A DNA stretch of 64,000 nucleotides from Phytophthora colocasiae. Lineage: Eukaryota > Oomycota > Peronosporomycetes > Peronosporales > Peronosporaceae. The stretch spans positions 62,001 through 126,000 of the forward strand of contig JAGKQI010000064.1 in assembly GCA_018806915.1 (NCBI GenBank), given 5' to 3'. The position numbers and the translations under genes are program-made. Positions within the stretch are counted from its first letter, which is position 1. Every line of letters begins with the position of its first letter. Shown here one piece after another: positions 1,336-48,253 of the stretch. The notes beneath the pieces were generated by a model, which searched no databases, had not been told where the DNA came from, and saw nothing but the letters and a program-made list of their open reading frames with translations.

Positions 1336-1638
1336 TAAGAAGGTCAAAATCAGCCGGGCTGGAGGGGTTAAAAACACAAATACTAGTACATGAGCAATGA
1401 TAAGGGGTGTAAGGCACAACATGTAGTGGACGCTTCCAGCTCTTCTATCGACACAAGAAACATTGTCAAAACGACCTGAAAATCGGATTTACTGAATTAT
1501 GCGGTTAAGACGTGTGGACTGCTGAAAAGCATTTGCATCGAACGGCTACACGAGCACAAGAAGATCGTCATTGAACTCGGGGACCGGAAACTCTGACACA
1601 CGGGGAACCAGTCACTTCATGGTCTTGGTGGTGGTGAT

Positions 1639-1956
1639 CTACCATCCCCAACCACCCATACCACCCCAGCCGCCCATGCCACCCCAGCCACCCCAACCAC
1701 CACATCCTCCACAGCTACCCCAGCCTCCCCACGGACCTCCCCACCCGAATCCTCCAAACCATTCCTTCTTCTTGTCGTTGGCCGCCAACTTGGCGGACTC
1801 CTTGACAGCAGTAGCATCTGGCGCATTGGGTTTAGTCGAAAGATGCGCGTGCTCAGAAGCAGGTTCAGGTGCGGCGAGAGATCTCAATGCCGGTTGGTAC
1901 TCGTTGGCCGCTGCGACGGCGACAAGTGTGGTGACGACGAGTGCGGTGAACTTCAT
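1639..1956 (-). CDS. GW1: secreted Gly/Trp-rich small protein, unit 1
   Basis: A 105-residue protein. Residues 1-18 form a clear signal peptide (MKFTALVVTTLVAVAAA, predicted cut before NEY). A hydrophilic Ala/Glu/Lys-rich linker reaches about residue 65 (ending NDKKKEW). The last 40 residues are Gly and Trp repeats (GGFGWGGPWGGWG, GGMGGWGW) with two cysteines spaced CGGC. The start is the ATG that gives the signal peptide; the stop is TAG. I do not recognise a named family. Composition resembles structural cell-wall or extracellular glycine-rich proteins; that role is inference. It is transcribed away from GY1 from a shared 329 bp region. The proline-rich reading on the other strand is an antisense artefact. 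Confidence 0.85.
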   Translation of the reverse strand: MKFTALVVTTLVAVAAANEYQPALRSLAAPEPASEHAHLSTKPNAPDATAVKESAKLAANDKKKEWFGGFGWGGPWGGWGSCGGCGGWGGWGGMGGWGGMGGWGW

Positions 1957-2285
1957 AGTACTTGCTTACTTGCGGCGAATGGACTTGTGCGGAGGAAGGC
2001 AAGTTGGTTTGTGAATGGAGACCTGAATGGAGCGGCCGAAGTGGTTGTAGTCCTGTTGCATCACGTGAAAGTTGCTACTGTACTACGTCCAGGAAGGACT
2101 TTCAACGGAACATCCGAGCACGTGAATCTAAAACACCGGCAAGAGCTTTCGTAGTAATCGCCAAGCAACGAGACGCAGACTTTTCTAACGACCTCAATCA
2201 AAAAAGATGAGCCTCAGTGTGGTGGTCATCCGGCATTTTGCGCTGTCGCGAATACCCGCCCCAAAAATCCCGAAACTCAACTATC
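1957..2285. promoter_or_regulatory. Divergent promoter between GW1 and GY1
   Basis: The two start codons face away from each other across 329 bp. Two perfect CACGTG palindromes lie at 2062-2067 and 2119-2124. GGTCATCCGGCATTTT at 2224-2239 matches the oomycete initiator/FPR consensus GCTCATTYYNCAWTTT at 13 of 16 positions and sits 46 bp upstream of the GY1 ATG, the usual place. On the GW side TCTCCATTCACAAA is a weaker candidate. The same region lies between GW and GY in units 3-11 (330-334 bp). bZIP control through CACGTG is inferred. Confidence 0.6.
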
Positions 2286-2663
2286 ATGATCAAGCGTGTT
2301 GCCGTTCTGCTTTTGGTGGTGCTGGTCGCTATGCTGAGCTGTGCTCATGCTGATGAAACTCCTGCAGCAGCAGTGGGTGCAGAAGATGCTGCAACGGAGC
2401 AAACCCCGCCAGGCGTGACACTCGTGGGAGACCGCGAGCCTGTGCCGACCAACAAGGAGCAGCTGGAGCAATTCATCGGAGGCGGAGGTGGTTTCATTCC
2501 GACCAGAGGAATCACGTACCGCTGGCGCTACACGTACCCGTGGGCTGGAGGATTCCGCTACGGTTGGCGCTACCCGATCGGCTACTGGAACACGTTCGGT
2601 CGTTCCCTCTACGGCTCGAGCTGCTTTTTCGGACGTTCATTTGGGGGCTTTTACTACTGCTAA
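2286..2663 (+). CDS. GY1: secreted Gly/Tyr-rich small protein, unit 1
   Basis: A 125-residue protein starting MIKRVAVLLLVV. The signal peptide runs to about residue 22 (cut after AHA, before DETPAAA). It has an acidic linker, a GGGGGFIP hinge, and a C-terminal half rich in Tyr, Trp, Arg and Gly that ends in GGFYYC. An in-frame codon upstream would add 23 residues in front of the signal peptide, so the inner ATG is chosen; it also follows the core promoter at the right distance. This copy has the shorter VGAEDAATEQ linker shared only with unit 8. No named family is recognised. The ending resembles that of the Gly-rich gene in the inverted block (GYWN..LYG..C..YYC). Confidence 0.85.
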   Translation: MIKRVAVLLLVVLVAMLSCAHADETPAAAVGAEDAATEQTPPGVTLVGDREPVPTNKEQLEQFIGGGGGFIPTRGITYRWRYTYPWAGGFRYGWRYPIGYWNTFGRSLYGSSCFFGRSFGGFYYC

Positions 2664-2921
2664 ATAGCGCGTACTTCTCGGCTATAGCGTGCCGCTATAA
2701 CATGGCAACGGAACCGCGAGAAAGGTGAAGAAGGGAGCGAAAAACGAAGCGCGTTTCGGTTGCAGGACGCAGCTACTCCAGATTTAACGAGTTAACGAGG
2801 TGTTAGTGGCGTTTAGGAAGGACAATAACTTGCAGCAGGAGTAGTGACAGCTTGCAATTGAAAATCCGATGGTTTTATCACTCGAATTCAAGTTCCGATT
2901 GTACGTTCCTTTAGTTTGTCT

Positions 2922-2954
2922 CCAACCTGCAAGGAAGTTGTGTCTCGCGGAGAG
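2922..2954 (+). pseudogene. MetAP2 3'-end relic, short form, unit 1
   Basis: The bases read PTCKEVVSRGE in one frame, matching the last residues of eukaryotic methionine aminopeptidase 2 (PTCKEVxSRGDDY). In this unit about 480 bp found in long units is missing just before it (junction after TTTGTCT). Confidence 0.6.
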
Positions 2955-46185: not shown

Positions 46186-46560
46186 GGCAAGCATGCTGGA
46201 AGACTGAAAAACTTAGCCATAACACACATGATAACTGTGCTGCTGACACTTCTGAATTCCACAAGGACAACATCGCGCTGGTTGGTAGTGTAGGATTCGT
46301 TTTCGCAGAAAAAGACGAGGAAGAAGTTGATTTAGGCAAGCTTAGTAGACACCTGCAGGTGTTACGACCAACCTAACGAAAACGAGATAGAAATCAGAAT
46401 TTGTGCGGTTAAGACGTTGTGGACTGCTGAAAAGCATTTGCATCGAACGGCTACACGAGCACAAGAAGATCGTCATTGAACTCGGGGACCGGAAACTCTG
46501 AGGGACCGGAAACTCTGACACACGGGGAACCAGTCACTTCATGGTCTTGGTGGTGGTGAT

Positions 46561-46878
46561 CTACCATCCCCAACCACCCATACCACCCCAGCCGCCCATG
46601 CCACCCCAGCCACCCCAACCACCACATCCTCCACAGCTACCCCAGCCTCCCCACGGACCTCCCCACCCGAATCCTCCAAACCATTCCTTCTTCTTGTCGT
46701 TGGCCGCCAACTTGGCGGACTCCTTGACAGCAGTAGCATCTGGCGCATTGGGTTTAGTCGAAAGATGCGCGTGCTCAGAAGCAGGTTCAGGTGCGGCGAG
46801 AGATCTCAATGCCGGTTGGTACTCGTTGGCCGCTGCGACGGCGACAAGTGTGGTGACGACGAGTGCGGTGAACTTCAT
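46561..46878 (-). CDS. GW11: secreted Gly/Trp-rich protein, unit 11
   Basis: 105 residues, intact, identical in prediction to GW1. Confidence 0.85.
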   Translation of the reverse strand: MKFTALVVTTLVAVAAANEYQPALRSLAAPEPASEHAHLSTKPNAPDATAVKESAKLAANDKKKEWFGGFGWGGPWGGWGSCGGCGGWGGWGGMGGWGGMGGWGW

Positions 46879-47208
46879 AGTACTTGCTTACTTGCGGCGA
46901 ATGGACTTGTGCGGTGGAAGGCAAGTTGGTTTGTGAATGGAGACCTGGATCGTAGCGGCCAAAGTGGTTGTAGTCCTGTTGCATCACGTGAAAGTTGCTA
47001 CTGTACTACGTCCAGGAAGGACTTTCAACGGAACATCCGAGCACGTGAATCTAAAACACCGGCAAGAGCTTTCGTAGTAATCGCCAAGCAACGAGACGCA
47101 GACTTTTCTAACGACCTCAATCAATAAGGATGAGCCTCAGTGTGGTGGTCATCCGACATTTTGCGCTGTTGCGAATACCCGCCCCAAAAATCCCGAAAGT
47201 CAACTACC

Positions 47209-47589
47209 ATGATCAAGCGTGTTGCCGTTCTGCTTTTGGTGGTGCTGGTCACTATGCTGAGCTGTGCTCACGCTGACGAAACTCCTGCAGCAGCAGCAGT
47301 GGTCGCAGAAGATGCTGCAACGGAGCAAACCCCGCCAGGCGTGACACTCGTGGGAGACCGCGAGCCTGTGCCGACCAACAAGGAGCAGCTGGAGCAATTC
47401 ATCGGAGGCGGAGGTGGTTTCATTCCGACCAGAGGAATCACGTACCGCTGGCGCTACACGTACCCGTGGGCTGGAGGATTCCGCTACGGTTGGCGCTACC
47501 CGATCGGCTACTGGAACACGTTCGGTCGTTCCCTCTACGGCTCGAGCTGCTTTTTCGGACGTTCATTTGGGGGCTTTTACTACTGCTAA
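47209..47589 (+). CDS. GY11: secreted Gly/Tyr-rich protein, unit 11
   Basis: 126 residues, intact. This unit ends in the long spacer at 48253, without relic or bZIP, where the inverted block begins. Confidence 0.85.
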   Translation: MIKRVAVLLLVVLVTMLSCAHADETPAAAAVVAEDAATEQTPPGVTLVGDREPVPTNKEQLEQFIGGGGGFIPTRGITYRWRYTYPWAGGFRYGWRYPIGYWNTFGRSLYGSSCFFGRSFGGFYYC

Positions 47590-48253
47590 ATAGCGCGTAC
47601 TTCTCGGTTATAGCCTGCCGCTATAACATGGCAACGGAACCGCGAGAAAGGTGAAGAAGGGAGCGAAAAACGAAGAGCGTTTCGGTTGCAGGACGCAGCT
47701 ACTCCAGACTTAACGAGGTGTTAGTGGCGTTTAGGAAGGAAAATAACTTGCAGCAGGAGTAGTGACAGCTTTTGCAATTGAAAATGGATGGTTTTATCAC
47801 TCGAATTCAAGTTCCGATCTACGTTCCTAAAGTTTGTCTAGACTGTCGCTGGAGCAATCCATAATAGAGGAGTTCTTTTGTTCATCTTTTGGTGGGTCAA
47901 AGCGACGTTCTCGGATCAATTGTGTAACTGTTGTGCGATCACACTGTGATTCACAGTCGAGCTCATTGGCGATGCTTCCGCCAAATTTTGCATTTGTCCT
48001 GCGGCTTCAGGAACAGCAATACTGACCAGAATGACCATAGTTACCACATTCAGGTGCACGTACCTAGTCAACTAACCCCCAACAAGTCGACATTTTGCGT
48101 ACTACATTCATTCGTACACTACCTGTAGTCCAAAGAGTTGTCCACTAACTTCACTTCTCGCGGTAGTGGTAATTCCGTGTCTGTCAACGTTTCTTACGAC
48201 AAACAAACAACAGCAAAAACAACATAGGAATTGATAAAGCGGCGTTGAAACGA

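What the first reader, a model, noticed from the sequence alone, without database searches (positions are those of the whole stretch)
1461..48253. Amplified module: a bZIP regulator paired with two divergent secreted Gly-rich proteins
Eleven units repeat the same trio: GW (minus), GY (plus) and bZIP (plus). Both secreted proteins have strong signal peptides and low-complexity aromatic/Gly tails without a named family. Co-amplifying a transcription factor with its possible targets is unusual and could be a dosage system for wall or extracellular matrix proteins.
Basis: partly seen in the sequence, partly recalled or inferred. Interest (0 to 1): 0.85.

Follow-up and report, generated by a model that had tools for sequence, protein, structure and literature searches.

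The report
Amplified secreted glycine-rich genes, bZIP passenger
A water mould (probably a Phytophthora) has copied two small secreted-protein genes about eleven times side by side, and a gene-switch protein beside them was copied along but is mostly broken, so the copying looks like a way to make more of the secreted proteins rather than a joint regulator-and-target device.

Summary
The array is real but the trio is looser than described. GW (11 of 11 frames intact) and GY (7 of 11 clean, 1 with a changed tail, 3 disabled) sit head-to-head about 330 bp apart in 10 units. A bZIP follows in 10 of 11 units, but only 4 of the window's 12 bZIP copies have an open full frame, and 1 of 11 units has all three genes intact. 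Elsewhere in the 92.5-Mb genome no second trio was found. Six of the array's bZIP segments start inside the last exon of a MetAP2-like gene, a recombination scar. A third secreted gene, G3, homologous to GY, forms tandem arrays without a bZIP in the unit: 26 stop-free copies about 19 kb left of the window and 12 on contig C9. Best reading: repeated amplification of genes for small secreted Gly/aromatic-rich proteins, probably for dose, with the bZIP largely hitchhiking. The regulator-target idea keeps weak support: two CACGTG boxes in 10 of 10 shared GW-GY promoters. By-product: the Cys-type bZIP carries a predicted SnoaL/NTF2-like domain; two paper searches found no description of it.

The parts
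1639..1956 (-). GW unit 1 (intact, 105 aa)
2286..2663 (+). GY unit 1 (intact, 125 aa)
1957..2285 (.). shared divergent GW-GY intergenic region with two CACGTG and one TACGTC; same sites in all 10 head-to-head units
3316..4252 (+). bZIP unit 1 (14-bp deletion, frame broken)
4607..4924 (+). GW unit 2, inverted, intact
5127..5222 (+). GY unit 2, 3' fragment only
5907..6006 (+). stretch matching the 3' end of the MetAP2-like gene of C92, in front of the bZIP; such a match in 6 array units
6352..7302 (+). bZIP unit 2 (intact, 316 aa)
7473..13299 (+). insertion between units 2 and 3 with ORFs that look retroelement-like by eye
   Evidence: 4 ORFs scanned, no Pfam hit
13496..13816 (-). GW unit 3 (intact, 106 aa)
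14147..14527 (+). GY unit 3 (intact)
15169..16118 (+). bZIP unit 3 (frame broken)
18596..18913 (-). GW unit 4 (intact)
19244..19621 (+). GY unit 4 (frame broken)
21881..22830 (+). bZIP unit 4 (frame broken)
23196..23513 (-). GW unit 5 (intact)
23844..24224 (+). GY unit 5 (intact)
25355..26302 (+). bZIP unit 5 (stop at codon 258)
26606..28100 (.). 1.5-kb dispersed repeat inserted in the array; relatives at about 94% on other contigs; a second copy at 31571-33064
28171..28488 (-). GW unit 6 (intact)
28819..29199 (+). GY unit 6 (intact)
30320..31270 (+). bZIP unit 6 (intact, 316 aa); the only unit with all three genes intact
33135..33452 (-). GW unit 7 (intact)
33783..34166 (+). GY unit 7 (open frame, changed C-terminus)
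35285..36221 (+). bZIP unit 7 (11-bp deletion and the shared stop)
36591..36908 (-). GW unit 8 (intact)
37239..37616 (+). GY unit 8 (intact)
38269..39219 (+). bZIP unit 8 (stop at codon 258)
39601..39918 (-). GW unit 9 (intact)
40249..40629 (+). GY unit 9 (intact)
41752..42699 (+). bZIP unit 9 (stop at codon 258)
43085..43402 (-). GW unit 10 (intact)
43734..44114 (+). GY unit 10 (start lost)
45253..46185 (+). bZIP unit 10 (open, 310 aa, 6-residue deletion)
46561..46878 (-). GW unit 11 (intact)
47209..47589 (+). GY unit 11 (intact); the unit ends at 48253 without a bZIP
48253..49092 (-). truncated MetAP2-like copy
49304..49794 (-). G3 (GY-like secreted gene), broken copy
50168..51116 (-). bZIP, broken, in the MetAP2-bZIP-G3 block
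51475..52887 (-). MetAP2-like pseudogene (frame interrupted compared with the C92 copy)
53097..53587 (-). G3, second broken copy
53961..54911 (-). bZIP, intact, in the MetAP2-bZIP-G3 block
55269..56681 (-). MetAP2-like pseudogene (frame interrupted compared with the C92 copy)

Best explanation
A recombination-made tandem array in an oomycete (probably a Phytophthora near P. citrophthora and P. capsici) that multiplies two genes for small secreted Gly/aromatic-rich proteins, GW and GY. Shown: relatives of the parts lie apart elsewhere in the genome (GW-like on C29/C18, GY-like on C83/C100, MetAP2-G3 on C92); GW and GY each keep the proximal promoter of their own relatives; and in six array units the bZIP segment begins with the end of a MetAP2-like exon. 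Inferred: the parts were brought together and the bZIP joined to the GW-GY pair by recombination; unequal crossing-over and gene conversion then multiplied the 3.0-5.0-kb unit; selection acts on the dose of GW and GY, presumed surface or matrix proteins needed in bulk at some stage. The bZIP is largely a decaying passenger with a few intact copies left. The related G3 arrays show the same amplification without a bZIP.
For: GW 11 of 11 intact, against GY 7 of 11 and bZIP 4 of 12. pN/pS across copies: GY 0.20 (9 copies; unit 4 dropped, unit 2 not in the alignment; binomial p 0.025), GW 0.39 (10 copies, p 0.06), bZIP 0.60 (12 copies, p 0.16; about 1.6 over codons 141-316). GW has 0 frame-breaking indels in 10 copies where 5.4 are expected at the neighbouring noncoding rate (p 0.004). 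No second trio seen. Own proximal promoters. MetAP2-like 3' end in front of the bZIP. G3, homologous to GY (hhalign probability 98.5%), is amplified without a bZIP: 26 of 26 matches at C93:2155-43027 full length and stop-free, and 12 such matches at C9:1541653-1607777 among further partial ones; the one unit read from each array shows no bZIP ORF.
Against: The bZIP is not simply neutral: 8 frame-breaking indels where 19.4 are expected at the noncoding rate (p 0.003), while GY shows no depletion (6 against 6.4; 4 of the 6 are in broken unit 4); its first 92 codons have pN/pS 0.26. The contrast in nonsynonymous share between GW+GY and bZIP is not significant (Fisher p 0.085). The bZIP frame is about three times longer than GW's, so it offers more targets. 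The GW-GY promoter carries two CACGTG boxes in 10 of 10 units (p 0.005 against a Markov background). The C93 G3 array lies only about 22 kb from the first bZIP of the window. No expression data; the dose argument is inference.
Confidence: 0.62

Rival explanations
1. One reading: a dosage cassette in which the bZIP regulates the adjacent GW-GY divergent promoter, and regulator and targets are kept together and amplified together.
For: Adjacency in 10 of 11 units; two CACGTG and one TACGTC site in the shared promoter in 10 of 10 head-to-head units, more than expected (p 0.005; background 0.11 CACGTG per 330 bp); four bZIP frames remain open; bZIP indels are fewer than at the noncoding rate.
Against: Only 1 of 11 units has all three genes intact. 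The CACGTG boxes are absent at the aligned positions of the three GW paralogs, although these have TACGTG at -194 and -283, and there is none in 400 bp upstream of three GY paralogs on C83. Whether a Cys-type bZIP binds CACGTG is unknown. Similar secreted genes amplify without a bZIP in the unit.
Confidence: 0.13
2. Neutral repeat expansion: the array is a by-product of transposon-driven recombination in a repeat-rich region, with no selection on any gene, or is inflated by assembly errors.
For: A dispersed repeat inserted in and spread with the units; many broken copies; low power of the selection tests.
Against: GW 11 of 11 intact with no frame-breaking indel in the 10 copies counted; GY changes lean synonymous (5 of 8); GW and GY have relatives in Phytophthora and downy mildews; units differ by up to about 6% and by distinct lesions, unlike simple assembly duplicates. 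The right flank had no second long match in the genome; the left flank was compared with the window only.
Confidence: 0.17
3. GW and GY are host-directed secreted effectors amplified in an arms race rather than structural proteins.
For: Some database relatives are named RxLR effector by their sources (P0020, P0022, P0045); small secreted proteins in a multi-copy array.
Against: Copies are nearly identical with few replacement changes; no RxLR string in 11 GW and 8 GY frames; the Gly/Trp/Tyr-rich tails are conserved across species.
Confidence: 0.08

Closest known systems
C-R class bZIP proteins of Phytophthora (Ye et al. 2013, PMC4046829: abstract, sections 6 and 9 and passages read; includes Pibzp1)
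   Same: Cys in place of the basic-region Asn with Arg eight residues on; recent species-specific and tandem duplications
   Different: Here in an array with secreted Gly-rich genes and with most copies broken; a C-terminal SnoaL/NTF2-like domain is predicted, while that paper reports no extra domains except a PAS domain in PsBZPc32
Loricrin-like protein PiLLP of P. infestans (PMC5298957, abstract and outline seen)
   Same: Gly-rich oomycete protein, there linked to oospore formation and infection
   Different: No homology to GW or GY was tested; an analogy only
GY family: conserved secreted proteins of Phytophthora and downy mildews (e.g. PITG_00544, PHYSODRAFT_509561)
   Same: Similar length, signal-peptide-like start, PPGVT and GWRYPxGYWN...GGFYYC motifs, 49-92% identity
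   Different: Here a second, array-borne set next to GW; PITG_00544 was named in no paper of the library

Membership tests
C-R class oomycete bZIP | Cys at the Asn position with Arg eight residues later (C-x7-R) | tested here: met
   C102 and R110 against the class definition in PMC4046829 section 6
C-R class oomycete bZIP | Long basic-zipper helix with Leu heptads | tested here: met
   Predicted helix 96-143; L120, L127, L134; Pro132 in the zipper, invariant in the 11 sequences of A1, is unusual
Canonical bZIP (PF00170) | Match to the Pfam bZIP_1 model over its cut-off | tested here: not met
   No PF00170 match for the window protein at E <= 0.1; no window place among the 18 genome matches
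SnoaL/NTF2-like fold superfamily (C-terminal domain of the bZIP) | alpha+beta cone fold | tested here: met
SnoaL/NTF2-like fold superfamily (C-terminal domain of the bZIP) | Sequence match to Pfam SnoaL_2 over the curated cut-off | tested here: not met
   17.2 bits against 27; matches at E <= 1 in 8 of 11 members of A1, none over the cut-off in the members whose scores were shown
GY family | Homology along the full length with conserved C-terminal GYWN...YYC region | tested here: met
   30 database proteins with E <= 0.001; alignment of 19 sequences, 17 of those 30 and 2 window copies
RxLR effectors | RxLR motif | tested here: not met
   No R-x-L-R string in 11 of 11 GW frames and 8 of 8 open GY frames

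The most novel reading that the evidence does not exclude
The Cys-type bZIPs are a large oomycete family of ligand-sensing regulators that fuse DNA binding to a SnoaL/NTF2-like pocket, and this array is a local feedback circuit: intact and pocket-truncated bZIP copies (shared stop at codon 258, before the last two predicted strands) act on CACGTG boxes in the shared GW-GY promoters to set the output of a secreted-protein super-cluster.
Probability: 0.08. Interest if true: 0.8.

Novelty: new member of a known kind. Interest (0 to 1): 0.45.

Why it matters
It shows a region where three genes for small secreted Gly/aromatic-rich proteins (GW, GY, G3) lie together and have been multiplied to dozens of copies, the pattern expected if the organism needs bulk amounts of a surface or matrix protein whose identity is unknown. 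It also warns that neighbouring regulators inside such arrays can be passengers. The by-product, a predicted SnoaL-like domain on a large oomycete bZIP family, suggests a testable reason why these regulators expanded.

Tried and rejected
Core-promoter motifs: INR/FPR strings (consensus recalled, not read; of PMC3599244 I saw the abstract and section 7) gave one INR for GW (-88), two for bZIP (-85, -59) and one FPR for GY (-51), one unit each; uninformative. PMC3520976 was searched for bZIP, CACGTG, ACGT and G-box: no occurrence. A fold for GY: mean pLDDT 51.8, not usable. Sequence search of solved structures with the bZIP alignment: nothing convincing (best E 0.08). Looking for an allelic contig: the right flank (57-62 kb) matched only itself plus a 110-bp stretch on the same contig. 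Papers: no hit for PITG_00544, Phytophthora+bZIP+NTF2-like, a six-term duplication search, glycine-rich oospore tandem or tandem array glycine-rich; Phytophthora+glycine-rich+secreted+tandem+gene cluster gave 9 papers, none on such an array by title and abstract start; SnoaL+bZIP gave 6 papers, none on oomycetes by title and abstract start. Other Phytophthora genomes could not be read, so trio conservation stays open. The count of bZIP relatives spanning both parts (about 74 of 109 rows outside the window) was made by eye, includes probable allelic pairs, and rests on a search that scored 126 of 150 candidates. Rows dropped: unit 4 from the GY pN/pS; unit 2 from segment A (GW and GY counts rest on 10 units); end gaps from the indel count.
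Full report
What the window is. It is stretch 62,001-126,000 of contig C93 (1.65 Mb) in a 92.5-Mb assembly of 105 contigs. The closest bZIP found is from Phytophthora citrophthora (93%), the closest GY and GW from P. capsici (92% and 82%), so the source is probably a Phytophthora near these species; the species was not identified.

The array. Self-comparison (matches of 700 bp or more) shows units repeated from 1,468 to 48,253 at about 94-99.7% identity; regular GW spacings are 3.0-5.1 kb, with 2.7 and 9.2 kb around the inverted unit 2 and the insertion after it. GW and GY are divergent in 10 units, 329-330 bp apart in nine; in unit 10, whose GY start is lost, 346 bp was measured to a later codon. 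GW is open in 11 of 11 copies; GY is clean in 7 of 11 and one more has a changed tail; the bZIP is open at full length in 4 of 12 copies of the window, counting two in the MetAP2 block to the right. One unit of 11 (unit 6) has all three intact. Several 1-nt indels may be sequencing errors, but 5 of 12 bZIP copies carry larger deletions or the shared stop at codon 258.

Selection. Across copies pN/pS is 0.39 for GW (10 copies), 0.20 for GY (9) and 0.60 for the bZIP (12); the distinct-change binomial test gives p 0.06, 0.025 and 0.16. Within the bZIP the ratio is 0.26 for codons 1-92, 0.59 for 93-140 and about 1.6 after that. GW has no frame-breaking indel in 10 copies against 5.4 expected from neighbouring noncoding DNA (p 0.004). 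Against a pure passenger reading, the bZIP too has fewer than expected (8 against 19.4, p 0.003) and GY does not (6 against 6.4, four of them in broken unit 4). The direct contrast between GW+GY and bZIP is not significant (Fisher p 0.085). So the decay of the bZIP is clear in copy counts, less so in rates.

Origin of the trio. GW relatives lie on C29 (two) and C18, GY relatives on C83 (three) and C100, and the next bZIP relatives, at about 45% identity, on C73, C56, C46 and C38. None of these GW/GY places has a listed bZIP match nearby: the nearest on the same contig are over 400 kb away on C29 and over 2 Mb on C100, and none is listed on C18 or C83 (my reading, whose counts are lower bounds). 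Upstream alignments show that GW and GY each carry the proximal promoter of their own paralogs. In six array units the bZIP segment begins with a stretch that matches the last about 100 bp of a gene on C92; translation shows that gene's C-terminus ending there. The gene has a Pfam Peptidase_M24 domain; the name MetAP2 is recalled from its sequence. The block at 48,253-56,685 repeats MetAP2-bZIP-G3 (99.7% identical copies); its MetAP2-like and G3 copies are broken. Most simply, the bZIP came to the GW-GY pair from this MetAP2 neighbourhood by recombination; the direction is inferred.

A second amplified gene. G3, intact and divergent from the MetAP2-like gene on C92, is homologous to GY (BLASTP 2e-12 over 32 C-terminal residues; hhalign probability 98.5%). 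It has 26 full-length, stop-free matches at C93:2155-43027, about 1.6 kb apart, ending about 19 kb left of the window, and 12 full-length stop-free matches at C9:1541653-1607777 besides partial ones. The one unit that I read from each array shows no bZIP ORF, and one search lists no bZIP in either interval; the nearest are about 22 kb away on C93 (the window's own) and over 300 kb away on C9. Amplification of such genes thus does not need a bZIP in the unit.

Promoter. The GW-GY region holds two CACGTG and one TACGTC in 10 of 10 units. CACGTG twice is unlikely by chance (p 0.005; background 31 sites in 91 kb of 16 other loci). The boxes are not at the aligned positions of the three C29/C18 GW promoters, which however have TACGTG at -194 and -283; of the C83 GY promoters one has no ACGT in 400 bp and two have one ACGT each but no CACGTG. 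The boxes of the array are therefore probably one event copied ten times, and the target site of a Cys-type bZIP is unknown.

Other species. GY relatives (30) occur in Phytophthora, Peronospora and Peronosclerospora; GW relatives (29, some weak or from unnamed sources) likewise. GY and GW of P. oleae report different contig lengths.

Verdict. The tandem array and the secreted genes are real and of some interest; the regulator-target module is not supported, though not excluded. Function of GW/GY as wall or matrix proteins is inferred from composition and secretion only.

Noticed in passing
G000:C93:2155-43027 (left of the window): Tandem array of 26 full-length, stop-free G3 matches (secreted, Gly/Trp-rich, homologous to GY), about 1.6 kb apart; a second G3 array on C9:1541653-1607777.
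   Followed up: partly
window 30320-31270 and about 74 places in the genome: Cys-type bZIP family with a predicted SnoaL/NTF2-like C-terminal domain.
   Followed up: partly
window 26606-28100 and 31571-33064: 1.5-kb dispersed repeat inserted in the array, with ATT at both junctions, further copies elsewhere in the genome.
   Followed up: partly
window 16353-18425: Insertion with apparent terminal inverted repeats (CCCCCTGGTTCCCG...CGGGAACCAGGGGG).
   Followed up: no
window 48253-56685: Duplicated block (99.7%) with MetAP2-like pseudogenes and broken G3 copies.
   Followed up: yes
window 138-842: ORF that looks like a transposase fragment by eye; no Pfam hit.
   Followed up: no
G000:C73 and C56, C46 and C38, C29 and C18: bZIP or GW loci with equal or similar scores on paired contigs, suggesting that both haplotypes or subgenomes are partly assembled; not compared directly.
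   Followed up: no
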